From: Umezawaea endophytica
GTDB lineage: Bacteria > Actinomycetota > Actinomycetes > Mycobacteriales > Pseudonocardiaceae
Direction of reading: 5' to 3'
DNA length: 64,000 bases
Assembly (NCBI RefSeq): GCF_025061645.1
Contig: NZ_JANYMP010000040.1
Location: 1-64,000, forward strand
Of the stretch, positions 30,526 through 50,500 are shown in pieces. The stretch's first letter is position 1. Each line of letters begins with the position of its first letter. The notes beneath the pieces were generated by a model. It had not been told where the DNA came from, searched no databases, and saw only the letters and a program-made list of their open reading frames with translations. A program made the position numbers and the translations under genes.

Positions 30526-32481
30526 TCAGACGGGCACGACGGTGAACCGGTCGTCCTCGGTGATCCCCGGCGGCAGCTTCTCCACCCGGATCGCGGACGC
30601 CTTGTACTCGGCGGTGCCCGCGATCGGGCAGGTCGCCTCGATGGTGATCGAGTTGACGTCGATCTCGTCCGGGAAGTGGAACGTCATGAACGCCAGCCCC
30701 GGCCTGAGCCCGTCGTCGATCCGGACCGGCGCGACGATCGCGCCGCGTCGTGACGAGATCTGCACCAACTCGTCCTGGCGCACGCCAAGCAGTTCGGCGT
30801 CCTCCTGGCACAGGTCGAGCGTTTCCCCGCGCCGCAGCGGCGACTCGAACCCGCTCGACTGCACACCGGTGTTGTAGGAGTCCAGCCGTCGGCCGGTGGT
30901 GAGCCGCAACGGGAACTCGTCGGAGAGCAGGTCGACCGGCGGGCTGTGGTCCAGCACCGAGAACGGCGCGGGCCGCCCGCGCTTGGCCGGGTCCTCCTCC
31001 CACAGCCGACCGTGCAGGAAGCTCGGCTCGATCGTGTCCTCGCTGTAGCAGGGCCACTGGATCCCACCGAGGTCGGCGAGCCGCTGGTAGGTCATCCCGG
31101 CGTGCATCGGCGAGAGCTGCCGCAGCTCGTCCCACACCTGTTCGGCGCTGGTGTAGTCCCACTCGTCGTGCCCGAGCCTGCGGGCCAGGTCGCAGAGGAT
31201 CGCGATGTCGTCCCGCGCTCCTTCGGGCGCTTCGAGTGCTTTGCGCACGCGTTGGACGCGGCGCTCGCTGTTGGTGAAGGTGCCGTCGGTCTCGCACCAG
31301 GCGGCAGAGGCGGGCAGCACGACGTCCGCGAGCTGCGCGGTCTTGGTGAGGAAGATGTCCTGCACCACCACGTGGTCCAGGTTCGACAGGCGTTTGCGCG
31401 TGTGCTCCGAGTCGGCCTCGGACTGCACCGGGTTCTCGCCGATGATGTACACGCAGGTCATGTCCCCGCGTTCCATCGCCTCCAGCATCTGGGTGAGGTT
31501 CTGGCCCTTGTACGGCGGGATGGTCGAGCCCCACAGCGCGTCGTACTTCGCGCGGACCTCGGGGCTGAGGATGTCCTGGAACCCCGGCAGCCGGTCCGGG
31601 ATCGCCCCCATGTCACCACCGCCCTGCACGTTGTTCTGCCCGCGCAACGGGTTCAGGCCCGCCCCGTAGCGGCCGACGTGCCCGCAGAGCAGCGCCAGGT
31701 TGATCAACGACAGCACGTTGTTGGTGCCGTTGTGGTGCTCGGTGATCCCGAGCGTCCACGACATCTGCCCGCGGTCGGCGCGCGCGTAGGCGTGGGCCAG
31801 TTCCCGGATCAGCTCCTTCGGCACCCCGGTGACCTCTTCGGCGACCTCCAGCGTCCACGGCTCGACCGACGCCTTGAACTCGGCGAACCCCTCGGTCGCC
31901 CGCTCGATGAACGCCTCGTTCGCCAACCCGGAGTGGATGATCTCCCGCGCGACGGCGTGCGCCAACGGGATGTCCGTGCCCACGTGCAGTTGGAGCCACC
32001 GGTGCCCCCACTTCGCGGTGCTCGTCTTCCGCGGGTCGACCACGAAGAGCTTCGCCCCCTTGTGCACCGCTTTCAGCACGTGCTGGAAGAAGATCGGGTG
32101 CGCTTCCCGCGCGTTAGACCCCCACAGCACCACCACGTCGGCGTCCTCGATCTCCCGGTACGACGACGTCCCACCACCGCTGTCGAACACACGGGCCAAC
32201 CCGGCGACGCTGGGCGCGTGACAGGTGCGGTTGCAGGAGTCCACGTTGTTGGTCCCGATCACCGCACGGGTGAACTTCTGCGCCACGTAGTTCATCTCAT
32301 TGGTGGCCCGCGCACACGAGAACATCCCGAACGCGTCCGGCCCCTTCGCAGCGACGTTCCGCCGAAACCCCTCAGCCGCCCGCTCCAACGCCTCTTCCCA
32401 ACCGGCAGGCCTCAACACCCCGTGCTCCCGCACCAACGGCTCGACCAGTCGCACGTAGGGCTCACTCTTCCTGCGCCTCAT
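30526..32481 (-). CDS. Formate dehydrogenase catalytic (molybdopterin) subunit
   Basis: 651 residues covering the molybdopterin domain and the C-terminal dinucleotide-binding domain but not the N-terminal Fe-S domains. The active-site cysteine is Cys87 in NRTCHAPSVAG, followed by the conserved His88; the selenocysteine of E. coli FdhF is replaced by Cys. The start ATG 32481 is set by GGAGGT eight bases upstream; a GTG at 32499 would place that site inside the gene. First gene of the operon and preceded by a putative GntR operator. Oxidises formate to CO2, here probably the end step of oxalate breakdown. Confidence 0.92.
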   Translation of the reverse strand: MRRRKSEPYVRLVEPLVREHGVLRPAGWEEALERAAEGFRRNVAAKGPDAFGMFSCARATNEMNYVAQKFTRAVIGTNNVDSCNRTCHAPSVAGLARVFDSGGGTSSYREIEDADVVVLWGSNAREAHPIFFQHVLKAVHKGAKLFVVDPRKTSTAKWGHRWLQLHVGTDIPLAHAVAREIIHSGLANEAFIERATEGFAEFKASVEPWTLEVAEEVTGVPKELIRELAHAYARADRGQMSWTLGITEHHNGTNNVLSLINLALLCGHVGRYGAGLNPLRGQNNVQGGGDMGAIPDRLPGFQDILSPEVRAKYDALWGSTIPPYKGQNLTQMLEAMERGDMTCVYIIGENPVQSEADSEHTRKRLSNLDHVVVQDIFLTKTAQLADVVLPASAAWCETDGTFTNSERRVQRVRKALEAPEGARDDIAILCDLARRLGHDEWDYTSAEQVWDELRQLSPMHAGMTYQRLADLGGIQWPCYSEDTIEPSFLHGRLWEEDPAKRGRPAPFSVLDHSPPVDLLSDEFPLRLTTGRRLDSYNTGVQSSGFESPLRRGETLDLCQEDAELLGVRQDELVQISSRRGAIVAPVRIDDGLRPGLAFMTFHFPDEIDVNSITIEATCPIAGTAEYKASAIRVEKLPPGITEDDRFTVVPV

Positions 32482-32515
32482 CGGCAGACCTCCACACACG
32501 TCGCTGATCGTCGAC

Positions 32516-32530
32516 TGTATGCAACATACG
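32516..32530 (-). promoter_or_regulatory. Putative GntR operator, formate dehydrogenase operon
   Basis: TGTATGCAACATACG: 5-bp arms around a 3-bp centre, 35-49 bp before the catalytic-subunit ATG. The minus strand reads TTGCATACA, the half-site shared with five other sites in the cluster. Confidence 0.5.
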
Positions 32531-32642
32531 TTATTCGAGTGATCGCGGGAAGGGAAGGGGGAAGGGCGGTGAAGGCTGGCCGGGTGGGCGGAATCTGGGC
32601 GAAACCGGAGGGTGGGGTCGGGGTTGGGCCGGGGCTGGGGTT

Positions 32643-32810
32643 AGCAGGTGGCGCTGAGTCGGACCATGGGGCTGGCGCTAGAAGGTGGCACCGAGTTGGG
32701 CCAAGGGGTTAGGACTGGCACGTGGCACCAAGTCGGGCCAAGGGGTCGGGGCTAGAAGGTGGCGCCAAGTCGGACCAAAGGGCTGGGGCTAGAAGGTGGC
32801 ACCGAGGCCA
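32643..32810 (+). repeat. Tandem array of a 37-bp repeat
   Basis: Four full units begin at 32643, 32680, 32717 and 32754, each of the form AGAAGGTGGC-ACC-GAGT-GGACCAAGGGG-TGGGGCT with a few differences. A fifth starts at 32791 and decays after about 20 bp. A degenerate copy may precede at about 32606. Spacing is exactly 37 bp, which is not a multiple of three. No unique spacers, so not CRISPR. Confidence 0.85.
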
Positions 32811-33276
32811 GCCTCAGGGGGGTGGGGCAAGAACTGCTGCCGGGCCACCAACGCAACCAAAGCCAGAACCAACCAATGACCCACCACCACACCACAGCCA
32901 CGACAACGCTCGCCCCACCCGACAACCACCTCACACCCAACAACCACCAACACCCGCGCCACCGACCAACCGCCGACACCGCGCCTCAGCCACTCGCCCC
33001 CGCCGCACCACCGACCAACCGCACCGCAGACGCCACGCCCCAACCACTCCACCGCCGCATCACCAACCAACCGTCTGAAACCAGACCCAGCCACCTGCCT
33101 GCCGCGCCACCGACCGGCAGGCACCCCTCTCCCCCGCCACCCCTCTCCCCCGCCACCCTGCCCTGCCGCCCTGCCCTGCCCTCAGCCCGTTCGCGGATGT
33201 TCCGCCCGCCAAGGCACCTTCCCGCCCTGACGAGCGAAACCACCCACCGAGGCACGTGCCCCACGGTGCGAATCCC

Positions 33277-34266
33277 TCAAGCCGTAGGCACCACAGCGGC
33301 CGTGGTGCGGTTCAGCAGGTCGATCGCCGCGTACACGTTCCGCAACGCAGGCGCCGGAATCCGGGTCAGGTCGGCGATTTCCACCACCGCGCCGATGATC
33401 GCGTCGATCTCGAGCGTCTTCCCGGCCTCCAGGTCCTGCAACATCGACGTCTTGTGGTGCCCCACCCGCTGCGCCCCGTCGATCCGCTTCTCGATGGACA
33501 TCTCGGGGTTGCTCCCGGCGGCGCGGGCGATGGCCACGGTCTCGGCCATCATGTCGGCGACCAACCGGCGGGTGTCCTGGTGCGCGCAGATCTCCGCCAT
33601 CGTCGCCCTGGTCAACGCGCTCAACGGGTTGAACGCCACGTTCCCCATCAGCTTGATCCAGATGTCATCCCTCAGGTTGGACTCCACCGGGCACTTCAGC
33701 CCGCCCGCGACCATCGCCTCGCTGAGCGCCAGGCACCGGTCCGACACCCCGCCGCCGGGCTCCCCGATGGAGAACCGGGTGCCCTCCAGGTGCCGGATGA
33801 CGCCGGGGGCCTCGATCTCGGTGGAGCAGTACACGACGCAGCCGATCGCCCGACGGGTGTCGAGCACCGCGCTGACCGCCCCTCCCGGATCCACCGCCTC
33901 GATCCGCCGCCCCTCCAGCGGATGCCCCGTCAGCCCGTGGAAGTACCACCAGGGAATCCCGTTCTGCGCCGCGATCACCGACGTGTCCGGACCGAGCAGC
34001 GGCTTCAGCAACGGCCCGGCCGACGCGTACGAATGCGCCTTCAACCCGAGGAACACGTGGTCGACCTCCCCAACCTCCTCCGGATCGTCGGTGGCGTGCG
34101 GGTGTTCGGTGAAGTCCCCCCGCGGACTGAGCACCCGCACCCCGCGCGCCCGCAGCGCTTCCAGGTGCGGCCCCCGTGCCACCAGGTGGACCTCGACTCC
34201 AGCGCGATGCAGGGCAGCGCCCACATAGGCGCCGATCGCTCCTGCTCCGAGAACGGCGACTCTCAT
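33277..34266 (-). CDS. Ketopantoate reductase-like protein; candidate oxalyl-CoA reductase
   Basis: 329 residues. N-terminal Rossmann motif VLGAGAIGAYVGAAL, then LKAHSY near 76, the QNGIPWWYFHG block near 106, and the C-terminal helical domain with KLMGNVAFNPLSALT near 205 that carries the catalytic lysine of the PanE fold. Gene context points away from pantothenate synthesis: it is divergent from the GntR regulator and has its own operator copy. In Methylobacterium extorquens a PanE paralogue (PanE2) reduces oxalyl-CoA to glyoxylate; the same role here is inference. Start ATG 34266. Confidence 0.8.
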   Translation of the reverse strand: MRVAVLGAGAIGAYVGAALHRAGVEVHLVARGPHLEALRARGVRVLSPRGDFTEHPHATDDPEEVGEVDHVFLGLKAHSYASAGPLLKPLLGPDTSVIAAQNGIPWWYFHGLTGHPLEGRRIEAVDPGGAVSAVLDTRRAIGCVVYCSTEIEAPGVIRHLEGTRFSIGEPGGGVSDRCLALSEAMVAGGLKCPVESNLRDDIWIKLMGNVAFNPLSALTRATMAEICAHQDTRRLVADMMAETVAIARAAGSNPEMSIEKRIDGAQRVGHHKTSMLQDLEAGKTLEIDAIIGAVVEIADLTRIPAPALRNVYAAIDLLNRTTAAVVPTA

Positions 34267-34288
34267 GTCCTGCCTCATCTCTGCGTGA

Positions 34289-34308
34289 TTGCATACAGTA
34301 TACTGAAT
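34289..34308 (-). promoter_or_regulatory. Putative GntR operator before the reductase gene
   Basis: TTGCATACAGTATACTGAAT: GCATAC and GTATAC separated by one base, 23-42 bp upstream of the minus-strand ATG at 34266. AT-rich against a GC-rich background. Confidence 0.6.
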
Positions 34309-34423
34309 AACCTGGACAACACCAGGCCATCGCGCACGAAACGCAATCGGGTGATTACCCAGAGTCCGACATCGGCGACAATTGACCCGGTTGACGATCA
34401 ACGTGACGTACCGCACCTGAACT

Positions 34424-34445
34424 TTGCATACAACAACCTGTATGC
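34424..34445 (+). promoter_or_regulatory. Putative GntR operator, autoregulatory
   Basis: A perfect inverted repeat GCATAC-N8-GTATGC, 35 bp upstream of the gntR ATG. Shares the TTGCATAC half-site and the following CTGAA with the site before the 61-residue protein gene. Confidence 0.65.
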
Positions 34446-34479
34446 TGAAACCATTCATCCGACGAGCGAGGAGGTGGCC

Positions 34480-35214: not shown

Positions 35215-35277
35215 CAACAGCGGTGGCACCAGCACCTACCTCCACGAGGGCGGTGATGGTCACCACTACCGCCCACA

Positions 35278-35299
35278 TTGCATACGAAAGCCTGTATTC
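35278..35299 (+). promoter_or_regulatory. Putative GntR operator before the 61-residue protein gene
   Basis: TTGCATAC with GCATAC-N8-GTATTC, the same spacing as the autoregulatory site and the same CTGAA extension. It lies 140 bp before the next ATG and 64 bp after the gntR stop codon, so it serves a separate promoter. Confidence 0.6.
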
Positions 35300-35898: not shown

Positions 35899-36885
35899 TC
35901 ATCCTCCGCTCCGCGACTCCGCTTCCCTCATCACGGCCGCGGCGCGACGTCGGGTCCCGACGAGGCTCGCGACCGTGGTGACCAGCAGGGTCACGACGAT
36001 CACGCCGAGGGACAGCGTGATCGGCACCTCCGGCGCCCACGGGACGCCGTGGTGGTGCAGGGCCTCGAAGATCAGCTTGAGGCCGATGAACGCGAGCACG
36101 AAGGCCAAGCCCTTGCTCAGGTAGATGAGCCGGTCGAGCAGCCCGCCCACGAGGAAGAAGAGCTGGCGCAGCCCCATGAGGGCGAACGCGTTGGCCGTGA
36201 ACACCAGGTACGGCTCCTTGGTGAGCCCGAAGATCGCCGGGATCGAGTCGACGGCGAACAGCAGGTCCGTGGTGCCGACCGCGACCATCACGATCAGCAT
36301 CGGCGTGACGACCCGCCGCCCACCGACGCGGGTGGTGATCGCCGCGCCGCGGTAGCCGTCCGAGGTCGGCACCACCCGCCGCACCAGGCGCAGCGCCGCG
36401 TTCTCGGAGAACTCGGCCTCGCCAGACGACTCGTCCTGCCTCAGCAGCTTCCACGCCGTGAACACGAGGAAGGCGCCGAAGACGTAGAAGAGCCAGTCGA
36501 ACCGGGAGATCGCGCTCGCTCCCGCCACGATGAAGACCGCCCGCAGCGCCAGCGCCAGCACGATGCCGACGAGCAGCACCTTCTGCCGGTACTCGCGCGG
36601 CACGGCGAACCTGGACATGATCAGCACGAACACGAACAGGTTGTCGACGCTGAGCGAGTACTCCGTGATCCAGCCCGCGAAGAACTCCCCGCCGTACCGA
36701 CCGCCCGCGAACAGCGTGACCCCGAGGCCGAAGACGACGGCCAGCGACACGTAGCCGAGCACCCACAGCAGTGATTCCCGGAACGAGGGGTCGCGCGGAT
36801 TCCGTGCCACGAGCCAGAAGTCGAACGCGATCACGGCCACGAGCCCGCCGATGGTCGCCAGCCACACCCAGGTGTGCAGGTCCAT
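35899..36885 (-). CDS. TerC/Alx-family membrane protein
   Basis: 328 residues with about nine membrane helices. The two conserved acidic clusters of the family are visible: EYSLSVDNLFVFVLI near 75 and GTTDLLFAVDSIPAI near 205. Family members export manganese or protect against metal stress (Alx, MeeF, TerC). GGAAAGG spaced seven bases before ATG 36885 sets the start; a TTG six bases upstream is too close to that site. Last gene of the oxc-frc operon, suggesting metal balance matters when oxalate, a metal chelator, is handled. Confidence 0.88.
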   Translation of the reverse strand: MDLHTWVWLATIGGLVAVIAFDFWLVARNPRDPSFRESLLWVLGYVSLAVVFGLGVTLFAGGRYGGEFFAGWITEYSLSVDNLFVFVLIMSRFAVPREYRQKVLLVGIVLALALRAVFIVAGASAISRFDWLFYVFGAFLVFTAWKLLRQDESSGEAEFSENAALRLVRRVVPTSDGYRGAAITTRVGGRRVVTPMLIVMVAVGTTDLLFAVDSIPAIFGLTKEPYLVFTANAFALMGLRQLFFLVGGLLDRLIYLSKGLAFVLAFIGLKLIFEALHHHGVPWAPEVPITLSLGVIVVTLLVTTVASLVGTRRRAAAVMREAESRSGG

Positions 36886-36887
36886 GC

Positions 36888-37433
36888 TCAAGCCTTTCCG
36901 GCGCGGGACGGATGTCGGGACCGCCTGCGCTCACGGGCTTCCGCCAACGCCGCCGCGTGCGCGACGTACCGCTCGAACAGCTCGGCTGCCGCTGGGTTAC
37001 CCGTTCGCACGCGCCTCATCCACCCCGGCGCGATCCGCTCGTGCAGCCAGAGGAACCCGATGGCCCAGCCGACGCTCACCATCGCCTGGTACGCCAGGAA
37101 CCCGAGCAGGTCGGACGGCAGACCCGGTGCGCCGCCGAGGATCCACCCGGACAGCACCTCGTGCGCCAGTCGCGCCAACGGGAAGCCGACGAACCAGAAC
37201 AGCGCGGCGGGTGCGAAGACCCCGATCCGGACCTTCCCCGATCCGACCAGCACGCCGTAGATCCCGCCGAGCACGGCCAGCGGCACGCCGAGGGTCAGCG
37301 CGGTGACCATCGCCCACCCCGGTGGCTGCCCCACCACCAGCGCCAGCGCGCCCGCCACGAAGCCCGCCGTCATGCCGACGACCGCGCCGGGCACGGCCAG
37401 TTCGCCGAGTCGTCTCACCTGTGCGATGGCCAT
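36888..37433 (-). CDS. Integral membrane protein, unknown function
   Basis: 181 residues with about four membrane helices (near 15-35, 40-60, 72-92 and 112-132) and a basic Arg-rich C-terminal tail (about 140-181). No family recognised. It sits one base after the Nramp-like transporter gene and two bases before terC, so it is tightly coupled to both and could be an accessory subunit. Confidence 0.75.
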   Translation of the reverse strand: MAIAQVRRLGELAVPGAVVGMTAGFVAGALALVVGQPPGWAMVTALTLGVPLAVLGGIYGVLVGSGKVRIGVFAPAALFWFVGFPLARLAHEVLSGWILGGAPGLPSDLLGFLAYQAMVSVGWAIGFLWLHERIAPGWMRRVRTGNPAAAELFERYVAHAAALAEARERRRSRHPSRAGKA

Positions 37434-37434
37434 G

Positions 37435-38940
37435 TCAGCCGACCACGACGCCGAACTTGACCAGGCTGAAGATGAGCATCCCCAGGTAGAACACCGCACC
37501 GAACCCGATGATCAGGTTCGTGACCAGCTTGGGGCGGATGGGTTTCGGCAGCATCCTGTTGTTCACCAGCAGGAGCACGACGCAGTAGGCGCCCATCGCG
37601 AACGTCGACAGGAACGCGAGCACGTCGAGGATCGCGCCCGGCCCGTCGGCGGGACCCCACAGCAGGATCACGATGCCGAACAGGATGACGCCCCAGAGGA
37701 ACCCGGCGTAGAGCTTGGAGACGCCGAACTTCTTGGCACCGGGCACGAAGTGGTACGCCATGTCGGACTGGCCGCGGGAGAACGAGTCGAACAGGCCCAG
37801 CGTGGCGTTGAGGCCGATCAGCGCGATGAACCCGAGGAACACGCCGCCGAGCACCGATCCGCCCGCCGAGGCGAACGCGTCGGACATGGCGTTGAGCGCC
37901 GCTTCGCGCTCGCCGGACTCGATGAGCCCCTTCACGTCCGGGCTCTGCCGCGACGCGGCCTGGGCGAGCACGGTGAAGGAGATCGTGACGAGCATCGTGA
38001 TGCCCCAGAACAGCAGCAGCGCGTCGAACGTGACCCAGCGCCGCCAGCCCTTCCACTTCTTCATCTCGTCCGCGTCGGACGTGTCGAACATGAAGCCGCG
38101 GGACGGCATCTCCTCCTCTTCGCCCGCGTGCCGGAGTCCGCGCACCTTCGGGATGTGCGCGCCCATGCCGGCGCCGCTGTCGCGCAGGTGCAGCGTGTAC
38201 CACATCTGCTGCATGCCGGACGGGCCCGCGAACGCGATCGAGCCGACGATGATCGGGAACCACGCGGCCGACATCGCCTGCTCGGGGAAGTACCCGAAGT
38301 GGAACATCCCGGTGATCGTGGAGACGACGTCCGACCACTGGCCGACCATCGCCGCGACGACCGACGTGCTCACGACGAGCAGACCGATCAGCATGGCCAG
38401 GACGTTCTCCAGCAACGGGTAGATGACCCTGGCCATGCTGAAGAGGATGCCGACGAGCACCAGGCCCACGCAGGCCGAGACCACCCAGGGGATACCGGTG
38501 ATCCTCTCCAGCGCGGCCGCACCGGCCGAGAGGTGGCCAGGCCAGATGTAGACGAGCATCGCGACCACGAAGAAGAACCACATGATCGGCTTGAACACGC
38601 GCGCGGCGCCGAAGAAGATGCTCTCCCCGGTGGCCATGGCGTAGCGGGCCATCTCCAGCATCACGACCGCCTGGAGCGTGACGCCGATGAGGAACAGCCA
38701 CCGGATCTCGGGCCCGAACAGCAGCACGAGACGGGGCCACATGTACGACTCCCCCATGCCGACGCCGAGCGCGACGAGGAAGACGGTCGGTCCTAGCAGG
38801 TGGATGGAAGGTGGTGCGTCGGGCAACTTGCGGATGGGCATCGGTTCCAGTCGCCCCGCTGGCCACACCCGCTCGACCGAGGGCGGAGGGGTCACTCCGC
38901 TCTCGGACGAGCTTGCGGCCGGGGCGTTCGACGAGTCCAC
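37435..38940 (-). CDS. Nramp-like (LeuT-fold) transporter
   Basis: 501 residues with roughly eleven to twelve membrane helices after a ~50-residue disordered Ser/Pro-rich N-terminus. Overall pattern matches Nramp relatives, but the metal-binding motifs are changed: TM1 reads GVGMGESYMWPR instead of DPGN, and TM6 reads AFAGPSGMQQMWY instead of MPH. A ~55-residue charged cytoplasmic insert (about 260-315) separates the halves. A GTG at 38940 with GGGAGG seven bases upstream is the best start. In the operon after the acyl-CoA synthetase gene; it may carry oxalate, a metal-oxalate complex or a cation. Confidence 0.8.
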   Translation of the reverse strand: MDSSNAPAASSSESGVTPPPSVERVWPAGRLEPMPIRKLPDAPPSIHLLGPTVFLVALGVGMGESYMWPRLVLLFGPEIRWLFLIGVTLQAVVMLEMARYAMATGESIFFGAARVFKPIMWFFFVVAMLVYIWPGHLSAGAAALERITGIPWVVSACVGLVLVGILFSMARVIYPLLENVLAMLIGLLVVSTSVVAAMVGQWSDVVSTITGMFHFGYFPEQAMSAAWFPIIVGSIAFAGPSGMQQMWYTLHLRDSGAGMGAHIPKVRGLRHAGEEEEMPSRGFMFDTSDADEMKKWKGWRRWVTFDALLLFWGITMLVTISFTVLAQAASRQSPDVKGLIESGEREAALNAMSDAFASAGGSVLGGVFLGFIALIGLNATLGLFDSFSRGQSDMAYHFVPGAKKFGVSKLYAGFLWGVILFGIVILLWGPADGPGAILDVLAFLSTFAMGAYCVVLLLVNNRMLPKPIRPKLVTNLIIGFGAVFYLGMLIFSLVKFGVVVG

Positions 38941-39008
38941 GGTTGGGCCTCCCACGGGAGATGCGGAACTGGCTTCTCGACTGACCTCCAAGGCAGCGGT
39001 GGTCGGCG

Positions 39009-41153: not shown

Positions 41154-41174
41154 GTCCGGCTGTCTCCTCGGGTA

Positions 41175-42404: not shown

Positions 42405-42434
42405 GGGGAAGTCCTCCCGCTAGAGGGGCGCGCG

Positions 42435-44189
42435 CTACTTGTACATGGTCTGGTTCATGGTTCCGGGCGCGTACGCGTCCGGATCGACCCAGACGTTGAT
42501 CAGCGAGGGCAGCCCGGACTCGCGAGCGCGCCGGAGCGCGGGCGCGATGTCCTTGGGGTCGCGCACCTCCTCGCCGTAGCCGCCGAGCATCTTGGCGAAC
42601 TGGTCGTACTTCACGTCGCCGAGCGTGTTGCCGACGCGTTCCCGCTCCACGCCGTACTTCTGGGCCTGGCCGTAGCGGATCTGGTTCATCGACGAGTTGT
42701 TGCCGACGATGCCGACGAACGGGAGGTCGTAGCGGACGAGGGTCTCGAAGTCCCAGCCGGTGAGGCTGAAAGCGCCGTCGCCGAACAGCGCGACGACCTC
42801 CTTGTCCGGGCGGGCGAGCTTGGCGGCGAGGACGAACGGGACGCCGACGCCGAGCGTGCCCAGCGGGCCGGGGTCCATCCAGTGGCCGGGGGACTTGGGC
42901 TGCACGACCTGGCCGGAGAACGTGACGATGTCGCCGCCGTCGCCGATGTAGATCGAGTCCTCGGTCAGGAACTCGTTGATCTCGTGCACCAGCCGGTACG
43001 GGTGGATCGGCGAGGCGTCGGACATCAGGTTGGGGAGCCTGCGCTGCCGCGCCTGCTCCTCCACGCCGTGCAGCTCCTCCAGCCACGCCTTGCGGCCCAC
43101 GGCGCCGTTGTCGACCCGCCCGGAGGCCGCGGCGGCGACGGCGGACAGCACGAGGCCCGCGTCGCCGACGATGCCGAGGTCGATGTCGCGGTTCTTGCCG
43201 ACGGTGCGGTAGTCCAGGTCGACCTGCACGACCGTCGCCTTCGCCGAGAGCCTGCGGCCGTAGCCCATCCGGAAGTCGAACGGCGTGCCGACGATGACGA
43301 TCACGTCGGCGTTGTCGAACGCGTACCGGCGGGAGAGCTGGAAGTGGTGCGGGTCGCCGGGCGGCAGGCTGCCGCGGCCCGCGCCGTTCATGTAGGCCGG
43401 GATGTTGAGCTGCCGCACCAGGTCCACGGCCGCGTCGGTGGCGCGCGTCGTCCAGACCTGGCTGCCCAGCAGGATCGCGGGCTTCTTGGCGCCCACCAGG
43501 AGGTCCGCCAGCCGCTCCACGTCCGCGGGGTCGCCGCCGGAACGCGTGGAGGCGCGGTACCGGCCCTCCTCGGGGACGCGGGCCTTGTCCACGGGAACCT
43601 TGGCGTCCAGGACGTCGCGCGGGATCTCCAGGAACGACGGGCCAGGAGCGCCGTGGTAGCACTCGCGGAACGCCATCGACACCAGGTCGGCGATCCGCGC
43701 GGTGGCCGGGACGGTGGCGGCGAACTTGGTGATCGGCGTCATCATGTCGACGTGCGGCAGGTCCTGCAACGAGCCCATCTTGTGCTGGCTCAACGATCCC
43801 TGGCCGCCGATCAGCAGCATCGGGCTCTCCGCGCGGAACGCGTTCGCCACACCGGTGACCGCGTCGGTGGTGCCGGGGCCCGCCGTGACGACGGCGCAGC
43901 CGGGCTTGCCGGTGACGCGGGCGTACCCGTCGGCCGCGTGCGCCGCCACCTGCTCGTGGCGCACGTCGATGACCTTGATGCCCTCGTCGACGCAGCCGTC
44001 GTAGATGTCGATGATGTGGCCGCCGCACAGGGTGAAGATCGTGTCGATGCCCTCGGCCTTCAACGCCTTGGCCACCAGGTGTCCACCGGAGATCAGTTCC
44101 GGACCGGCCGGGGTGGGATCGGTCGGGGTGCCGTCGGTGCCGGGCGCAACGCTGCCGCCTGAGGCAGCCTCGGTCGCTGTCCGCGCCAT
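42435..44189 (-). CDS. ThDP-dependent enzyme, probable oxalyl-CoA decarboxylase
   Basis: 584 residues, acetolactate-synthase fold. Pyrimidine domain contains the activating glutamate in VRHEQVAAHAADGYARV near 80. The ThDP/Mg motif is GDGAFSLTGWDFETLVRYDLP near 465, continuing to GNNSS. Neighbouring frc makes oxalyl-CoA to formyl-CoA plus CO2 the likely reaction. However, where Oxalobacter Oxc has the active-site Tyr-Glu pair (DYEEMDQ), this protein has SLQDLPHVD, closer to actinobacterial acetolactate-synthase-like proteins. The call therefore rests largely on context. First gene of the operon. Confidence 0.75.
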   Translation of the reverse strand: MARTATEAASGGSVAPGTDGTPTDPTPAGPELISGGHLVAKALKAEGIDTIFTLCGGHIIDIYDGCVDEGIKVIDVRHEQVAAHAADGYARVTGKPGCAVVTAGPGTTDAVTGVANAFRAESPMLLIGGQGSLSQHKMGSLQDLPHVDMMTPITKFAATVPATARIADLVSMAFRECYHGAPGPSFLEIPRDVLDAKVPVDKARVPEEGRYRASTRSGGDPADVERLADLLVGAKKPAILLGSQVWTTRATDAAVDLVRQLNIPAYMNGAGRGSLPPGDPHHFQLSRRYAFDNADVIVIVGTPFDFRMGYGRRLSAKATVVQVDLDYRTVGKNRDIDLGIVGDAGLVLSAVAAAASGRVDNGAVGRKAWLEELHGVEEQARQRRLPNLMSDASPIHPYRLVHEINEFLTEDSIYIGDGGDIVTFSGQVVQPKSPGHWMDPGPLGTLGVGVPFVLAAKLARPDKEVVALFGDGAFSLTGWDFETLVRYDLPFVGIVGNNSSMNQIRYGQAQKYGVERERVGNTLGDVKYDQFAKMLGGYGEEVRDPKDIAPALRRARESGLPSLINVWVDPDAYAPGTMNQTMYK

Positions 44190-44259: not shown

Positions 44260-44281
44260 TTGCATACCGTATGGGGTAGGC
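44260..44281. promoter_or_regulatory. Putative GntR operator between the divergent oxc and sucC operons
   Basis: TTGCATACCGTATGG: GCATAC and GTATGG one base apart, with a further GTAGGC giving the N8 spacing as well. It lies 71 bp from the oxc-like ATG and about 150 bp from the sucC start, in a 243-bp divergent promoter region that is AT-rich around the site. Confidence 0.6.
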
Positions 44282-44432: not shown

Positions 44433-45590
44433 TTGGACCTCTACGAACACGAGGCGAGAGACCTGTTCGCCGCCCACGGAGTACCGGTGTCCGCCGGTCT
44501 CGTCGCCACGACACCCGAGGAGGCCCGCGCCGCCGCCACCGCGATCGGCGGGGCCGTGGTGGTCAAGGCGCAGGTCAAGACCGGTGGCAGGGGCAAGGCG
44601 GGCGGGGTGCGGTTCGCCCCGTCGCCCGACGACGCGGCGAGTGCGGCGGACGCGGTCCTCGGCATGGACATCAAGGGCCACACCGTCCACAAGGTGCTGG
44701 TGACCGCGGCCAGCGAGATCGCCCAGGAGTACTACTTCTCCTTCCTGCTGGACCGGGCGAACCGGACGTTCCTCGCGATGGCGTCCGTGGAGGGGGGCGT
44801 GGAGATCGAGGAGATCGCCGCGTCCACCCCCTCCGCGCTCGCCAGGGTCCCCGTCGACGCGCTCGCGGGCGTCGACCTCGCCAAGGCGCACGAGATCGTT
44901 GCGGCGGCGGGACTTCCGGTCGAGGTCGCACCGGTCGTCGTCGCGCTGTGGGAGGTGTTCGTCACCGAGGACGCCACCCTGGTCGAGGTGAACCCGTTGG
45001 CGCGCACCAAGACCGGTGAGGTGCTCGCCCTGGACGGCAAGGTGACCCTGGACGACAACGCCGCGTTCCGGCATCCGGGGCACGCCGCGTTCGCCGACGA
45101 CCACGCGGGCGACCCGCTGGAACGGGCGGCGCGGGAGAAGGGCCTCAACTACGTCAAGCTCGACGGCGAGATCGGCGTCATCGGCAACGGCGCCGGGCTG
45201 GTGATGTCGACGCTGGACGTCGTGGCGCAGGCGAGCACCGAACTCGGCGGGTCGGGTCCGGCGAACTTCCTGGACATCGGCGGCGGCGCGTCGGCGCAGG
45301 TGATGGCCGACGGGCTGGAGGTCGTCCTCGGCGACCCCGGCGTGCGCAGCGTCGTCGTGAACGTCTTCGGCGGCATCACCGCGTGCGACGCCGTCGCGGA
45401 CGGGATCGTGCGGGCCCTGGAGATCCTCGGCGACCAGGCGCGCAAGCCGATCGTCGTGCGGCTGGACGGGAACAACGTCGACGAGGGGCGGCGGATACTG
45501 AAGACCGCCGACCACCCGCTGATCACGTTGGCGGACACCATGGACGGCGCGGCCCACCAGGCGGCCTCGCTCGCGGCTCAGGGGGTGTGA
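44433..45590 (+). CDS. sucC: Succinyl-CoA synthetase beta-like subunit
   Basis: 385 residues. ATP-grasp domain with [18 protein letters not shown] near 42 and [19 protein letters not shown] near 187, then the C-terminal CoA-ligase domain ([17 protein letters not shown] near 287, [16 protein letters not shown] near 310). I choose TTG 44433, giving the standard [12 protein letters not shown] start, with AGAGAGGA about ten bases upstream. Probably a paralogue of the TCA-cycle enzyme dedicated to this regulon; it could supply succinyl-CoA as a CoA donor or act on another dicarboxylate. Confidence 0.88.
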
Positions 45591-45591
45591 G

Positions 45592-46473
45592 ATGGCGATC
45601 TTCCTCAACGAGGGCAGCCGGGTCGTGGTGCAGGGCATGACCGGCTCCGAGGGCACCAAGCACACGCGGCGGATGCTGGCCGCGGGCACGAACGTCGTCG
45701 GCGGGGTGAACGCCCGCAAGGCCGGGCTGTCCGTCGACTTCGACGGCCGTTCGCTGCCGGTCTTCGGCGACGTGGCCGAGGCGATGGCGAAGACCGGCGC
45801 GGACGTGTCCGTGCTGTTCGTGCCGCCGAGGTTCGCCAGGGACGCCGTGGTCGAGGCCGTCGACGCGGGCATCGGGATGGCGGTGGTGATCACCGAGGGC
45901 ATCCCGGTGCACGACACCGCCGCGTTCTGGGCGCACGCGGTGAGATCAGGGCGCACGCGGATCGTCGGACCGAACTGCCCCGGCGTCATCTCCCCCGGCA
46001 AGGCCAACGCGGGCATCATCCCGGCCGACATCACCAAACCCGGCGGCATCGGGCTGGTGTCGAAGTCGGGAACCCTGACCTACCAGTTGATGCACGAGCT
46101 GCGGGACTTCGGGTTCTCCACGTGCGTCGGGATCGGCGGCGACCCGATCGTCGGCACCACGCACATCGACGCCATCGCCGCGTTCGAGGAGGACCCGGAC
46201 ACCGAGCTGATCGTGATGATCGGCGAGATCGGCGGTGACGCGGAGGAGCGGGCCGCGGAGTTCGTGCGGGACAACGTGTCCAAGCCCGTCATCGGGTACG
46301 TCGCCGGGTTCACCGCGCCCGAGGGCAGGACGATGGGGCACGCGGGCGCGATCGTGTCCGGCTCGTCCGGCACGGCCGCGGCGAAGCAGGAAGCCCTGGA
46401 GGCGGCCGGGATCCGGGTCGGGCGGACGCCCGGTGAGGCGGCGGCGTTGGCGAGGGCCCTGCTGGAGGCGTGA
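45592..46473 (+). CDS. sucD: Succinyl-CoA synthetase alpha-like subunit
   Basis: 293 residues. CoA-binding Rossmann domain ([15 protein letters not shown] near 12) and ligase domain with the phosphohistidine in [13 protein letters not shown] near 245. Also [19 protein letters not shown] near 125. Separated from the beta subunit by a single base, so the two are made together and form the usual alpha-beta enzyme. Ends in a strong terminator. Confidence 0.92.
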
Positions 46474-46474
46474 A

Positions 46475-46513: not shown

Positions 46514-46547
46514 GATTCGGGAGCGGGGGACGGCGCTCCCGAAAACC

Positions 46548-47387
<840 letters not shown>

Positions 47388-47813
47388 TGGTCCACCAGTT
47401 CGTCGTCGGGTCGTGGCAGAGCGCCAGGCAGTCGGCCAGCAGGTGGTGCAGCACGTCGTCGCGCCGGTCCCCCGCCCTGAGGGCGACGATCCTGGTCGCG
47501 TGCGCCACCACGGTCGGCGCGATCAGCCTGCCGCGCAACGGTTTGATGCCCGCCAGCGAGGTGCAGTGCAGGACCAGGTCCACCACCGGCGCGCGGGTCG
47601 TGTGCAGGAGTCCCGCGGCGAACGGGAGGAGGAGTTGCCGTCCGTCGTCGGTGCACTCGTCGTTGACGGACCTCGCGATCGACGCCAGCACCGGGTGGAC
47701 GGCGGCGGGGCGGTCCGACCAGACCTCACCCGCCAGCGTCGACACCAGTTCCAGCAGGCACTGGCCGTGGCCCGGCGTCGGGTGCCTGCCGCGCGACAGC
47801 CTCGGCACGCGGG

Positions 47814-49118
47814 TCATGACGTCGGGAGGAGTCGGGAGCGGCCCGGCTGCACCAGAGCCCTGGTGAGCAGTGCGCCGGTGAGGCCGACCAGTCCGGCGGC
47901 GATGAACGCGACCGGGTAGCCGTGGGTGGTGACCACCGCGCCCGCGACGCCGACGCCGAGCACACCGCCGAGCGCCTTCGCGCTGTAGAGGAGGCCGAAG
48001 TTCTGCAAGCCGCTCTCCTCGCCGAAGTACTCGCGGACCAGCGCCACCAGCAGCGTGTAGCAGCAGCCCGTGCCCAGCCCGGCGAGGCAGGCGCCCAGCA
48101 GCAGCGCGGCCGGGCGGTCGTGGGTGCCCGCCCACAGCAGGAGGAACTGGGCGGCGCTGCCGGTGAGCAGCGACAGGTACCAGGTGCGGCGTCGGCCCAG
48201 CCGGTCGGAGATCCGGCCGACCAGTACCCGGCCGCCGCCCGTGCACGCGGCGAGCGCGCTGAGCGCCACCGCGGCCCACAGCGGGTCGGTGCCGCTGAAC
48301 GTGGCCAGGAAGGCCAGGTCGAACAGCGACACGGCCGCCGCGAGCGCCACCGCCAGGAACATCGGCGCGACCGCCCCGCTGCGCAGGGCTTCGGCGGGCA
48401 GGTACTGGCGGACCGCCGACTGGTTGCGCCGCCGGGCCTTGTCCAGCGCCCACGCGCGCGGCTCGACGTGCGCGGGCCACCAGTGCTTCGGCGGGTCCTC
48501 CAGCGCGATGCCCGCGCCGACGATCACGGCGAGCACGACGATCGCCGCGGCGTCGAGGAACAGGGTCTTGGTGCCCGTGTTCAGCACGAGACCCGCCAGC
48601 AGCACGAACGGGACGCAGCCGTAGGCGAACGCTCCGCTGACGACGCCGACCCCGGACGTCACGCGCTCGGGGAACCAGCGGACCACCGTGCCCACGCAGG
48701 CCGCGTAGACCAGACCGGCGCCGACGCCGCCGAGCAGCGAGTAGCCCAGGTAGATGGTGACCAGGCTCGTGGCGTGGGCGAGGGTCGTGAGACCGATCCC
48801 GCACAGCACCCCGCCGACGACCACCGCCAGCGCCGGGGGCAGGTGGCCCCGGTCGCGCAGCCACGCGGCGGGGAACGCCGTGCCCGCCTGGCAGACGGTC
48901 CACAACGCCAGCGCCCAGACCACGTCGGTCAGCCGGTGGCGCTCCACGAGCACCGGGACCACCGCGCCGAACCCGTACTGCTGGATCCCGGCGGCGAACA
49001 TCGCCGCCCAGGCGGACCACAACATCCAGTTCCTCGACCGGCCCAGCAGCTCCCGGTCCGACTCGCCAACGCGGTACCGCCTGCCGTAGACGTCCCGCAT
49101 CTCCTGTGGTTCGGGCAC
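47814..49118 (-). CDS. MFS transporter, oxalate:formate antiporter (OFA) type
   Basis: 434 residues with twelve predicted membrane helices and a long central loop (about 210-250). The helix-11 motif LYSAKALGGVLG near 380 contains a membrane-embedded lysine matching the substrate-binding Lys of Oxalobacter OxlT. The DRLGRRR loop near 305 is the MFS A-like motif. It likely exchanges oxalate for formate or imports oxalate. ATG 49118 lies 26 bp from a putative GntR operator. First gene of the transporter-unknown-fdhD operon. Confidence 0.85.
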   Translation of the reverse strand: MPEPQEMRDVYGRRYRVGESDRELLGRSRNWMLWSAWAAMFAAGIQQYGFGAVVPVLVERHRLTDVVWALALWTVCQAGTAFPAAWLRDRGHLPPALAVVVGGVLCGIGLTTLAHATSLVTIYLGYSLLGGVGAGLVYAACVGTVVRWFPERVTSGVGVVSGAFAYGCVPFVLLAGLVLNTGTKTLFLDAAAIVVLAVIVGAGIALEDPPKHWWPAHVEPRAWALDKARRRNQSAVRQYLPAEALRSGAVAPMFLAVALAAAVSLFDLAFLATFSGTDPLWAAVALSALAACTGGGRVLVGRISDRLGRRRTWYLSLLTGSAAQFLLLWAGTHDRPAALLLGACLAGLGTGCCYTLLVALVREYFGEESGLQNFGLLYSAKALGGVLGVGVAGAVVTTHGYPVAFIAAGLVGLTGALLTRALVQPGRSRLLPTS

Positions 49119-49143
49119 ACTCCCACCCCACTTACATTGGAGA

Positions 49144-49160
49144 TCGTATACAGTATTAAG
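49144..49160. promoter_or_regulatory. Putative GntR operator between transporter and moeA-like genes
   Basis: GTATAC-A-GTATTA inside an AT-rich block, matching the one-base-spaced form of the other sites; the half-site is TCGTATAC rather than TTGCATAC. It could serve both divergent genes. Confidence 0.5.
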
Positions 49161-49213
49161 TAACCTCTTTTATAACACCGCCCGTGCCGGATGTCCACGT
49201 CGGGAGCGCTCTC

Positions 49214-50500
49214 ATGACCACTTGGCCAGCAGCCCGACAAGCGGCCCGCGACGCCGCGAAGCCCCTGGAAGCGGTGGAGGTCCCACTGGCGGACGCCCTG
49301 GGCGCCGCGCTCGCCGAACCACTCATGGCCCACACCCCCATGCCCGCCTTCGACACGGCGGCGATGGACGGCTACGCCGTCGCGGGCCCGCCGCCGTGGA
49401 CGCTGGTCGGGGAGGTGCGGGCGGGTGGGCTTGTGGTGGTTCGTCGGGGGGATGGGGGTGGTGGGGTGGGTTGGGCCGGGGTGGGTTGGGCTGCGGGAGA
49501 CCTGGGTCGGGGAGGTGGGGGTGCGGGAGATCTCGGCCGGGGAGGCGGGGATGCGGGAGACCAAGGTCCGGGAGGCGGGGCCACTGGAGACCAAGGTCCG
49601 GGAGGCGGGACCACTAGAGACCAAGAATCAGGAGGCTGGGGCGCGGACCGCCAAGGCCTAGGAAGCGGGAGCGCAGGAGACCAAGGCCGGGGAGACGGAG
49701 ACGCAGGAGAACAAGGCTTGGGAAGCGGGGGCGCGGGACATCGAGATGCGGGAGAGGCAAGCGTGGGAGACCGGGCCAAGCGAGGCCTGAGCGCGGACGA
49801 CTGGAAAATTCCGGTGGTCGATCGTGCCGTCCGGTCGTGCGATGCGCTGGTGGGCGAGGGCGAGCGAGGGGCGGACGGGGCCTCGGGAGCGCCTACCGGG
49901 TGCCGCGAAAGCGAGAGCTACGCGGGACTCCGCACGACCTCCAGCAGTCCCGAGCCAGCCTCCAGCAACTTCAGGTCACCCTCTGACAACTCTCAGCCGG
50001 CCTCCTGTGATTACGAACCGACCCCCACCGGTTCCGCGCCCGACCTTCACAGCCCCGAACCGACCCCCACCGACCCCGCGCCAGGCCCTAGCAGTTCCCC
50101 ACCAACCGACCTGCGGGCCGACGTGCGGGTCGCCGGGGTCGCGTGCAGGCCGGGGCATCCGCAACTGCTGGCCGTCTTCCCGGACGGGCGGTGCGTGGTG
50201 GGGCTGCCGGGGAACCCGTTCGCGGCGCTCGGAGCGTGCGTCACGCTGGTGGAACCGCTGGTAGGAGCCCTGGCGGGACGGCTCGTGAAGCCCGCGGTCA
50301 CGGTGGAGCTGCGGGGGGCCGTGGTCGCGCACCCGCGGGACACCCGGCTGGTTCCGGTCGTCCTGTCCGGTTCGACCGCCGCACCGGTCGGTCATGACCG
50401 ACCGGGCACGCTGTGGGGCGCCGCGCTGGCCGACGCGCTCGCCGTCGTGCCTCCGGGCTGGTCCGGTAGCCCGGTCGAGGTATTGCACCTGTCCGGCTAG
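49214..50500 (+). CDS. MoeA-like molybdenum cofactor protein with replaced centre
   Basis: 428 residues. Residues 1-75 match the MoeA N-terminus including PAFDTAAMDGYAV, which keeps the first conserved Asp. Residues ~300-428 match the MoeA C-terminus including GLPGNPFAALGACV and the last beta-barrel domain. The central molybdopterin-binding domain (TGDEL, GGVS and DSN-type motifs) is missing; residues ~85-300 are a Gly/Asp/Gln-rich repeat and then a Ser/Pro-rich string. It is likely unable to insert molybdenum alone. Start ATG 49214 is preceded by GGGAG. Either a decaying gene or an unusual cofactor carrier; the frame has stayed open. Confidence 0.7.
   Translation: MTTWPAARQAARDAAKPLEAVEVPLADALGAALAEPLMAHTPMPAFDTAAMDGYAVAGPPPWTLVGEVRAGGLVVVRRGDGGGGVGWAGVGWAAGDLGRGGGGAGDLGRGGGDAGDQGPGGGATGDQGPGGGTTRDQESGGWGADRQGLGSGSAGDQGRGDGDAGEQGLGSGGAGHRDAGEASVGDRAKRGLSADDWKIPVVDRAVRSCDALVGEGERGADGASGAPTGCRESESYAGLRTTSSSPEPASSNFRSPSDNSQPASCDYEPTPTGSAPDLHSPEPTPTDPAPGPSSSPPTDLRADVRVAGVACRPGHPQLLAVFPDGRCVVGLPGNPFAALGACVTLVEPLVGALAGRLVKPAVTVELRGAVVAHPRDTRLVPVVLSGSTAAPVGHDRPGTLWGAALADALAVVPPGWSGSPVEVLHLSG
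49496..49795 (+). repeat. Ten tandem 30-bp repeats inside the moeA-like gene
   Basis: Units start every 30 bp from 49496 to 49766. They encode ten-residue blocks such as GDLGRGGGGA, GDQGPGGGAT and GEQGLGSGGA. The second to fourth units are most alike; later ones drift, and the last is barely recognisable. The repeat length is a multiple of three, so changes in copy number keep the frame. Confidence 0.85.

What the first reader, a model, noticed from the sequence alone, without database searches (positions are those of the whole stretch)
32481..50500. An oxalate/formate regulon with one operator motif before every transcription unit
A TTGCATAC half-site with a GTATnC partner occurs at six places: before formate dehydrogenase, the PanE-like gene, gntR itself, the 61-residue gene, between the oxc/frc operon and sucCD, and between the OxlT-like and moeA-like genes. 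The sites are AT-rich islands in GC-rich DNA. Two spacings occur: one base (three sites) and eight bases (two perfect or near-perfect repeats). I saw no further copies outside the cluster. Together they tie transport, activation, decarboxylation, formate oxidation and cofactor maturation into one regulon under the FCD-type GntR protein.
Basis: partly seen in the sequence, partly recalled or inferred. Interest (0 to 1): 0.8.

Follow-up and report, generated by a model that had tools for sequence, protein, structure and literature searches.

The report
Oxalate genes under one shared switch
A soil actinobacterium carries its oxalate and formate genes under one rare, evolutionarily conserved DNA switch that very probably belongs to a GntR regulator in the same cluster; the regulon looks real, the enzyme called oxalyl-CoA decarboxylase is not of the usual type, and neither binding nor the inducing signal has been tested.

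Summary
The motif is real and its clustering is far from chance. TTGCATAC occurs 10 times in the 11.02-Mb genome: five times between genes of this cluster, five times inside other ORFs. ATAC-N-GTAT occurs at five places, three here; CATAC-N8-GTAT at two, both here. Two details fail: the site by the OFA transporter is GTATAC-A-GTATTA, and the formate dehydrogenase site has GTCGAC as partner.

In 100 family genomes, 37 of 38 with gntR carry TGCATACNGTAT, against 2 of 62 without; one genome with oxc but no gntR has no motif. The site precedes oxc in 79 of 80, 23 of 29 and 27 of 27 loci in three overlapping samples. Half-sites keep a roughly 7-bp register: inverted with 1 or 8 bp between, or direct repeats in gntR promoters, as in NanR.

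'Oxalate' is supported by a true formyl-CoA transferase and, in Phyllobacterium, an OxlT beside the same enzyme. But the 'oxc' enzyme fails the oxalyl-CoA decarboxylase model and lacks most of its key residues, and the moeA-like gene lacks its middle domain. Binding, effector and sign of regulation are untested.

The parts
32510..32524 (-). Operator 1 (fdhF promoter): TTGCATAC-A-GTCGAC, one-base spacing with a variant right half; 28 bp upstream of fdhF
   Evidence: IR1 upstream of fdhF in 3 of 4 family loci and 1 of 12 named loci; in those 12 named loci fdhF follows panE in the same direction
34289..34303 (+). Operator 2 (panE promoter): TTGCATAC-A-GTATAC, IR1
   Evidence: site upstream of panE in 26 of 29, 14 of 14 and 3 of 3 loci
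34424..34445 (+). Operator 3 (gntR promoter): TTGCATAC-N8-GTATGC, IR8; right half overlaps a TATGCT -10-like hexamer (by eye)
   Evidence: IR1 or IR8 upstream of gntR in 26 of 38 and 26 of 38 genes; IR or 7-bp direct repeat in 32 of 37 family and 30 of 30 Streptomyces promoters
35278..35299 (+). Operator 4 (61-aa ORF): TTGCATAC-N8-GTATTC, IR8
   Evidence: IR8 upstream of orf61 in 8 of 10 named and 2 of 19 family genes
44260..44274 (+). Operator 5 (between oxc operon and sucCD): TTGCATAC-C-GTATGG, IR1
   Evidence: upstream of oxc in 79 of 80, 23 of 29 and 27 of 27 loci
49146..49158 (+). Operator 6 (between OFA transporter and moeA-like gene): GTATAC-A-GTATTA, IR1
   Evidence: same ofa/moeA divergon with IR1 in L195, L204, L205
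34480..35214 (+). gntR, FCD-type GntR regulator, 244 aa (P0001), the proposed reader of the sites
   Evidence: PF00392 and PF07729; N159, H163, E204, H205, H227 invariant in 68 of 68; AlphaFold2 mean pLDDT 84.7 and FCD structures among the best fold matches
30526..32481 (-). fdhF, formate dehydrogenase alpha-like subunit
   Evidence: TIGR01591 654.6 bits, just under its cut-off 666.25
28707..30506 (-). NuoE/NuoF fusion, likely diaphorase subunit of the formate dehydrogenase
33277..34266 (-). panE-like, candidate CoA-acylating glyoxylate dehydrogenase (oxalyl-CoA reductase)
   Evidence: NF005089 456 bits against cut-off 223; 46% to the PanE-like gene of the C. metallidurans cluster; function by analogy with C. 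necator ApbA2 (PMC7486775)
35440..35625 (+). 61-aa ORF, conserved, function unknown
   Evidence: no family in Pfam or NCBIfam; relatives at 42-67% in many loci
35899..44189 (-). oxc(42435-44189)-frc(41175-42404)-acs(39009-41153)-nramp-like(37435-38991)-orf180(36895-37433)-terC(35899-36891) operon
   Evidence: frc TIGR03253 651 bits against cut-off 504; oxc not a canonical OXC
44433..46473 (+). sucC (44433-45590) and sucD (45592-46473), succinate-CoA ligase homologues
46548..49118 (-). OFA-like MFS transporter (47814-49118), small ORF not annotated here, fdhD (46548-47387)
   Evidence: fdhD NF001943 397 bits against cut-off 269; MFS_1
49184..50500 (+). moeA-like gene without its middle domain
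   Evidence: only MoeA_N and MoeA_C matched; 30-bp tandem repeats inside; relatives have the middle

Best explanation
The six sites are operators of the FCD-type GntR protein encoded at 34480-35214. It most likely acts as a local repressor. A dimer, possibly with a neighbouring dimer, grips half-sites of the form GTATGC (variants GTAT[TCA]C, GTAGAC, GTCGAC) placed about 7 bp apart: inverted with 1 bp between, inverted with 8 bp between, or as 7-bp direct repeats in its own promoter in many relatives. Binding over promoters shuts down the oxc-frc-acs-nramp-orf180-terC operon, sucCD, panE, the formate dehydrogenase genes, the 61-aa gene, the OFA transporter/fdhD unit, the moeA-like gene and gntR itself. 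A small acid or CoA ester of the pathway, held by the metal-type FCD pocket, would release it, so that oxalate uptake, CoA activation, decarboxylation, reduction to glyoxylate and formate oxidation switch on together. Shown by computation: sites, rarity, conservation, co-occurrence, spacing rule. Inferred: binding, repression, effector, and that the divergent TPP enzyme decarboxylates oxalyl-CoA.
For: Genome-wide rarity and clustering. Co-occurrence in 100 family genomes: gntR in 38, oxc in 38, both in 37; motif TGCATACNGTAT in 37 of 38 gntR+ against 2 of 62 gntR- genomes, whereas the reversed control pattern is in 10 of 38 and 6 of 62 (counted by hand). Six of the seven genera whose sampled members differ for oxc or gntR agree on both genes. 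G010 has oxc but neither gntR nor motif; G022, same genus as the window, has none of the three. Class sample: 29 of 29 oxc+ genomes among 394 have gntR. Of the 42 named loci without gntR in the fetched stretch I tested 30, all Streptomyces: 30 of 30 genomes have one gntR orthologue. Sites upstream of oxc 79/80, 23/29, 27/27; of frc 0/80, 0/33, 0/28; of acs 0/79, 0/31; of sucD 0/75, 0/14. Spacing over 145 loci: inverted n=1: 230, n=8: 91, n=14: 62, n=15: 10, any other n from 0 to 25 at most 4; direct n=3: 130, n=9: 61, n=10: 40, any other at most 9. 7-bp direct repeat in 30 of 30 Streptomyces gntR promoters against 0.0027 per 300 bp in loci L026-L085. Precedents: NanR on GGTATA repeats (PMC8012715, passages); extra half-sites 7-12 nt from FadR-type palindromes (PMC4494728, section 17); metal-dependent acid sensing by an FCD protein with an Asn-His-His triad (PMC4746285, passages).
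Against: No binding or expression data. Related genomes are not independent, so Fisher values overstate, and the three locus samples overlap. Sites are not universal: 12 of 38 gntR genes in each of the two larger samples and 6 of 29 family oxc genes lack IR1/IR8 within 450 bp. fdhF has an exact site in 1 of 12 named loci; OFA genes in 6 of 99 and 9 of 20 (many being the OFA gene behind acs); fdhD in 0 of 11 and 1 of 1. Outward pairs GTAT-N5-ATAC show a small unexplained peak of 21. G087 and G011 (74% complete) carry the motif without gntR; G040 has gntR without that exact pattern. The sites read AC-N-GT, not the usual FadR-type GT-N3-AC. No sigma-70 promoter was found by the scan around gntR, so overlap with promoters is by eye only. 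9 of 11 gntR+/oxc- regions show no IR1/IR8 in the 13-20 kb fetched around gntR.
Confidence: 0.82

Rival explanations
1. The regulon is real but its signal and core are formate (or formyl-CoA), not oxalate: a formate dehydrogenase regulon to which oxalate genes were added.
For: 9 of 11 class genomes with gntR but no oxc match have fdhD within 10 kb of gntR; formate dehydrogenase, fdhD and moeA-like units carry sites.
Against: IR1/IR8 sites are nearly constant at oxc and panE but patchy at fdhF; 29 of 29 oxc+ class genomes have gntR; fdhD near gntR may be old gene order only, and how often it lies there in oxc+ genomes of the same groups was not counted.
Confidence: 0.3
2. The TPP enzyme is a 2-hydroxyacyl-CoA lyase or carboligase, so the cluster degrades a 2-hydroxy acid through formyl-CoA and not oxalate.
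For: Nearest solved chains are 2-hydroxyacyl-CoA lyase 7pt1-7pt3 (about 286 bits), which PMC11271303 (passages) names as the A. chiangmaiensis 2-hydroxyisobutyryl-CoA lyase; chains named oxalyl-CoA decarboxylase score 262 (8vzk) down to 215 (7ayg), 199 (2q27) and 183 (2c31). NF058623 lyase 368 bits against TIGR03254 OXC 242 bits, both below their cut-offs. A GntR gene is listed next to the lyase gene of that organism too (PMC7176365, passages).
Against: The one residue that differs between the five lyase chains shown (Glu in 7pt1; recalled to be the catalytic Glu493) is Ile here; frc passes the oxalate_frc model and matches YfdW at 474 bits; in Phyllobacterium the same enzyme type sits beside frc and an OxlT that passes TIGR04259, 601 bits against cut-off 335 (a second Phyllobacterium record annotates oxlT too).
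Confidence: 0.2
3. The sites are read by another regulator, or are promoter elements, and gntR only travels with the cluster.
For: Right halves resemble -10 hexamers (TATGCT, TATTCT, TATACT) by eye; linkage alone could produce co-occurrence.
Against: In 30 of 30 Streptomyces genomes tested gntR lies outside the fetched oxc stretch (some still on the same contig) and the oxc site is present; in the one genome with oxc and no gntR (G010) the motif is missing; half-site spacing follows a protein-like rule; gntR's own promoter has half-site pairs in 30 of 30 and 32 of 37 cases.
Confidence: 0.1
4. GntR acts as an activator or dual regulator, as CitO does, rather than as a repressor.
For: CitO, an FCD protein, activates with citrate (PMC4746285, passages); no promoter was recognised by the scan around gntR, so occlusion is not shown.
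Against: Sites lie 22-34 bp from the fdhF, panE, gntR and ofa start codons, close to where a transcription start would be; most FCD catabolic regulators are repressors (recalled).
Confidence: 0.25

Closest known systems
NanR, E. coli sialic-acid repressor (FCD/FadR type), operator (GGTATA)3
   Same: FCD GntR protein; GTAT-type half-sites; tandem half-sites less than one helical turn apart; three operons of one pathway under one operator type (PMC8012715, passages).
   Different: NanR family model not met (80.8 bits, cut-off 260); here most sites are inverted (1 or 8 bp between), with direct repeats best seen at the regulator's own promoter; different pathway.
FadR-subfamily catabolic regulators in general (GlcC, LldR, PdhR, VanR and others)
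   Same: Domain structure, local catabolic regulon, near-palindromic sites, extra half-sites 7-12 nt away (PMC4494728, passages and section 17); VanR/AlkR, PmiR and McbR are among the best fold matches.
   Different: Consensus there has TKGT/ACMA boxes with 3, sometimes 2, nt between GT and AC; here AC-N-GT, and one regulon mixes several spacings.
C. necator frc-oxc and apbA2 oxalate genes
   Same: Same logic: frc-oxc plus a PanE-type CoA-acylating glyoxylate dehydrogenase nearby; frc-oxc deletion abolished growth on oxalate (PMC7486775, passages). C. metallidurans CH34 has the same gene set with a 65% identical TPP enzyme.
   Different: Whether the C. necator Oxc is of the window type was not tested; its regulation was not described in the passages seen.
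A. chiangmaiensis 2-hydroxyisobutyryl-CoA lyase cluster
   Same: Nearest solved relative of the TPP enzyme; formyl-CoA product; GntR gene beside it.
   Different: No frc, oxalate transporter or panE named for that cluster in the passages seen; its Glu position is Ile in the window enzyme.

Membership tests
GntR superfamily, FadR/FCD type | GntR wHTH plus FCD domain | tested here: met
   PF00392 68.2 bits, PF07729 84.1 bits, both over cut-off
GntR superfamily, FadR/FCD type | Asp/Asn and three His of the metal-type FCD pocket | tested here: met
   N159, H163, H205, H227 invariant in 68 of 68 orthologues; metal itself not testable; assignment of the four residues to the pocket is by pattern
GntR superfamily, FadR/FCD type | Usual operator TKGT-N2-3-ACMA | tested here: not met
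   Sites are ATAC-N-GTAT or ATAC-N8-GTAT; inverted spacing peaks only at 1, 8 and 14-15
NanR | NCBIfam NF003011 score over cut-off | tested here: not met
   80.8 bits against 260
NanR | Tandem direct GTAT-type repeats | tested here: inconclusive
   7-bp direct repeats in 30 of 30 Streptomyces and 18 of 37 family gntR promoters; at other targets they occur as part of triple half-sites in some loci
Oxalyl-CoA decarboxylase (canonical) | TIGR03254 over cut-off 739.4 | tested here: not met
   242 bits; no protein over cut-off in 33 actinobacterial genomes, own included, and over cut-off in 1 of 14 control genomes; E. coli OXC scores 1045.8
Oxalyl-CoA decarboxylase (canonical) | E56, Y120, E121, Y483, S553 | tested here: not met
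   Alignment with E. coli OXC keeps only E56; Y120-E121 aligns with L-Q, Y483 with I, S553 with N (residue list from PMC10192776 section 3.2; positions transferred to E. coli OXC by local motif)
Oxalyl-CoA decarboxylase (canonical) | Decarboxylation of oxalyl-CoA | not testable with these tools
   needs an enzyme assay
2-Hydroxyacyl-CoA lyase, actinobacterial | NF058623 over cut-off 600; catalytic Glu | tested here: not met
   368 bits; Ile at the Glu position (that it is catalytic is recalled)
Formyl-CoA:oxalate CoA-transferase (Frc) | TIGR03253 over cut-off 504 | tested here: met
   651 bits; E. coli YfdW 474 bits
Oxalate/formate antiporter OxlT | TIGR04259 over cut-off 335 | tested here: not met
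   No NCBIfam family at E 1e-50 or better for the window transporter; the Phyllobacterium neighbour scores 601
CoA-acylating glyoxylate dehydrogenase (PanE2/ApbA2) | Oxalyl-CoA reduction | not testable with these tools
   Only homology and gene context
Functional MoeA | Middle domain between MoeA_N and MoeA_C | tested here: not met

The most novel reading that the evidence does not exclude
Many actinobacteria, and some proteobacteria, degrade oxalate with an oxalyl-CoA decarboxylase that arose separately from the known one, out of the lyase/benzaldehyde-lyase side of the TPP family. It works with Frc, a PanE-type oxalyl-CoA reductase and two CoA ligases (SucCD to prime activation, the ADP-forming ligase to recover ATP from formyl-CoA) that would fill enzyme steps for which no gene is known. 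In the actinobacteria all are under one FCD regulator that reads half-sites on a 7-bp register in several architectures within one regulon.
Probability: 0.4. Interest if true: 0.75.

Novelty: new variant of a known kind. Interest (0 to 1): 0.6.

Why it matters
Oxalate is a large carbon pool in soil and many actinobacteria carry these genes, yet none of my searches of the held open-access library listed, by title and start of abstract, a paper on a dedicated oxalate regulator in them. The operator gives a search key that finds the regulon without annotation, and it ties genes of unknown role (61-aa protein, Nramp-like protein, two CoA ligases) to oxalate. PMC10192776 (passages) says that no gene is known for oxalate CoA-transferase (EC 2.8.3.2) or formyl-CoA hydrolase since the 1960s; the co-regulated ligases are testable candidates for those steps (my inference). 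The spacing rule gives a clean test of how one GntR dimer can read several operator layouts.

Tried and rejected
Motif as chance: rejected on clustering and conservation, although the one-mismatch window scan and the raw genome count are not clearly above chance. Motif as a general promoter element: not favoured (see rivals); the sigma-70 scan found none in 34200-35460. Conservation into proteobacteria: 1 of 4 proteobacterial loci (C. metallidurans) has ATACNGTAT before oxc, so not claimed. Control genes: upstream regions of frc, acs, sucD, terC, orf180, nramp-like and the NuoE/NuoF fusion have none in the samples counted. The first upstream count was wrong for oxc because the window protein has a longer N-terminus; one search replaces it. 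Rows dropped: genes with under 200 bp of upstream DNA, below an identity floor, or with a match starting after residue 60; so 29 oxc genes were counted from 37 family regions and 27 from 28 class loci. The AlphaFold2 model of the Nramp-like protein was poor (mean pLDDT 45) and was not used. Literature searches listed no oxalate regulator of actinobacteria; most subscription papers are not held and RegPrecise was not searchable, so an earlier prediction may exist. PMC10192776 reports an all-actinobacterial OXC group with key residues conserved in nearly all bacterial sequences; I did not test whether it contains window-type enzymes, so canonical OXC may exist in other actinobacteria.

Full report
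What is there. The window is 64 kb of contig 40 of an 11.02-Mb genome; its oxc protein is closest (93%, best of the 80 loci kept) to that of Umezawaea tangerina, then to Lentzea, Kutzneria and Saccharothrix proteins at 89-91%. The cluster holds fdhF and a NuoE/NuoF fusion, a PanE-like gene, gntR, a 61-aa ORF, an operon oxc-frc-acs-nramp-like-orf180-terC, sucCD, an OFA-like transporter with fdhD, and a moeA-like gene.

Sites. TTGCATAC occurs exactly five times in the window, always between genes of the cluster. In the whole genome it occurs 10 times; the other five copies lie inside open reading frames of at least 100 codons without a GTAT partner at spacing 1 or 8. ATACNGTAT occurs at five places, three in the cluster; of the other two one is inside an ORF and one between ORFs, with flanks unlike the cluster sites. 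CATACN8GTAT occurs at two places, both here. The site at 49146 lacks TTGCATAC, and the fdhF site has GTCGAC where GTATnC was claimed; GCATACNGTMKRC occurs in the genome only at the fdhF and panE sites. Rough Poisson values for the clustering are 1e-11, 9e-8 and 3e-6. Against: with one mismatch the window count equals chance, and the genome count of the octamer is close to that of its reversed control (10 against 7).

Conservation. ATAC-N-GTAT stands within 450 bp upstream of oxc in 79 of 80 (exception L011), in 23 of 29 genes from 37 regions around gntR orthologues of the same family, and in 27 of 27 counted from 28 loci of a class-wide draw. panE: 26 of 29, 14 of 14, 3 of 3. gntR (IR1 or IR8): 26 of 38 and 26 of 38. 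sucC: 73 of 75, 13 of 17, 8 of 8. frc, acs, sucD, terC, orf180, nramp-like and the NuoE/NuoF fusion: none where counted. fdhF: 1 of 12 and 3 of 4. fdhD: 0 of 11 and 1 of 1. OFA transporters: 6 of 99 and 9 of 20; further OFA or ofa/fdhD/moeA units with a site were found elsewhere in other genomes (L195, L196, L200, L201, L203, L204, L205). The samples overlap and related genomes share ancestry, so these are not independent events.

Who reads it. In 100 family genomes a gntR orthologue (55-82% identical to the window's in the others, clearly apart from paralogues at 39% or less, but for a second 53% copy in G029) is in 38, oxc in 38, both in 37. TGCATACNGTAT is in 37 of 38 gntR+ genomes and in 2 of 62 others; the reversed control is in 10 and 6. 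G010 has oxc, no gntR and no motif, and no IR1/IR8 lies in the 19 kb around its oxc. G022, of the window's genus, has none of the three. In 394 class genomes 29 have oxc, 40 have a gntR of at least 54% identity, and all 29 oxc+ are gntR+; ten further genomes with 40-44% matches were not counted as orthologues. Of the 42 named loci without gntR in the fetched stretch I tested 30, all Streptomyces; each genome has one gntR orthologue, 59-65% identical, and the oxc site is present.

How it is built. Over 145 loci (2.39 Mb) the distance between inverted ATAC and GTAT is 1 in 230 cases, 8 in 91, 14 in 62, 15 in 10, and at most 4 for any other value from 0 to 25; direct GTAT repeats peak at spacers 3 (130), 9 (61) and 10 (40); outward pairs show one small unexplained peak, spacer 5 with 21. 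Many sites hold three half-sites, for example CATAC-N-GTATGCA-GTATG, so the 1-bp and 8-bp forms are nested 7 bp apart. gntR promoters of Streptomyces carry GTAGAC-T-GTAGAC in 30 of 30; 32 of 37 family promoters carry a 7-bp direct repeat or an IR site. Known parallels are NanR on GGTATA repeats (PMC8012715, passages) and extra half-sites 7-12 nt from FadR-type palindromes (PMC4494728, passages and section 17). The mix of layouts within one regulon is what looks unusual to me.

The regulator. GntR and FCD domains are met. N159, H163, E204, H205 and H227 are invariant in 68 of 68, the pocket type that in CitO binds a metal and citrate (PMC4746285, passages). The AlphaFold2 model (mean pLDDT 84.7, residues 1-31 of low confidence) matches VanR/AlkR, PmiR, McbR and other FCD proteins. 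It is not a NanR or PhnR by the family cut-offs.

The pathway. Frc is a true formyl-CoA transferase by its model and by similarity to YfdW. The PanE-like gene resembles, by family and gene context, the CoA-acylating glyoxylate dehydrogenase of C. necator and M. extorquens (PMC7486775, passages), which would connect oxalyl-CoA to glyoxylate. The 'oxc' product does not pass the OXC model (242 bits against 739), keeps one of five key residues, and its nearest solved relatives are 2-hydroxyacyl-CoA lyase chains, whose varied Glu position is Ile here. No protein passes the canonical OXC cut-off in the 33 genomes checked. In Phyllobacterium the same enzyme type (66-68%) lies beside frc and oxlT, which is the best argument that it is a second kind of oxalyl-CoA decarboxylase. 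In the 3 of 8 plasmid records that list a gene there, it is called only a thiamine pyrophosphate-binding protein.

What stays open. Binding, sign and effector. Nine of 11 class genomes with gntR but without an oxc match have fdhD within 10 kb of gntR, and nine of the 11 regions show no IR1/IR8; so the ancestral signal may be formate-related. Two of the 11 (L241, L243) keep frc, a neighbouring site and sucCD but have no oxc between sucC and frc.

Papers. I saw passages of PMC4494728 (and its section 17), PMC8012715, PMC10192776 (and its section 3.2), PMC7176365, PMC11271303, PMC7486775, PMC4746285 and PMC12927642; of all others only search listings.

Noticed in passing
window 49430-50120 (moeA-like gene): The middle domain of MoeA is replaced by 30-bp tandem repeats and low-complexity codons in one open frame; relatives L195, L204 and L205 have a middle domain.
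   Followed up: partly
window 37435-38991 and relatives in 39 loci (2 short matches dropped): An Nramp-like protein without the DPGN metal motif (the stretch reads GVG[ML]GE[SAT]YMW in 39 of 39; the canonical motif is recalled) follows acs where the Streptomyces and most Amycolatopsis loci have an OFA transporter, so it may be an oxalate carrier; NCBIfam Nramp_1 matches, Pfam and PDB sequences do not.
   Followed up: partly
window 32631-33180: Tandem repeats of 37, 52, 26, 16 and 13 bp fill much of the gap between fdhF and panE.
   Followed up: no
L241 about 17760-17900, L243 about 15800-15960: Two genomes have the operator between sucC and frc but no oxc there, as if oxc had been lost while its promoter stayed.
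   Followed up: no
L121 (G029): Two gntR homologues (about 70% and 53% to the window protein) flank one oxc cluster.
   Followed up: no
window 35440-35625: The 61-aa ORF is conserved (42-67%), in some loci in two copies, often next to terC, and matches no Pfam or NCBIfam family.
   Followed up: no
L237, L253 (C. metallidurans and Caballeronia records): Proteobacterial clusters carry the same set panE-gntR-sucDC-oxc-frc-acs with 61-71% identical oxc, frc and acs but only a 30-31% GntR.
   Followed up: partly
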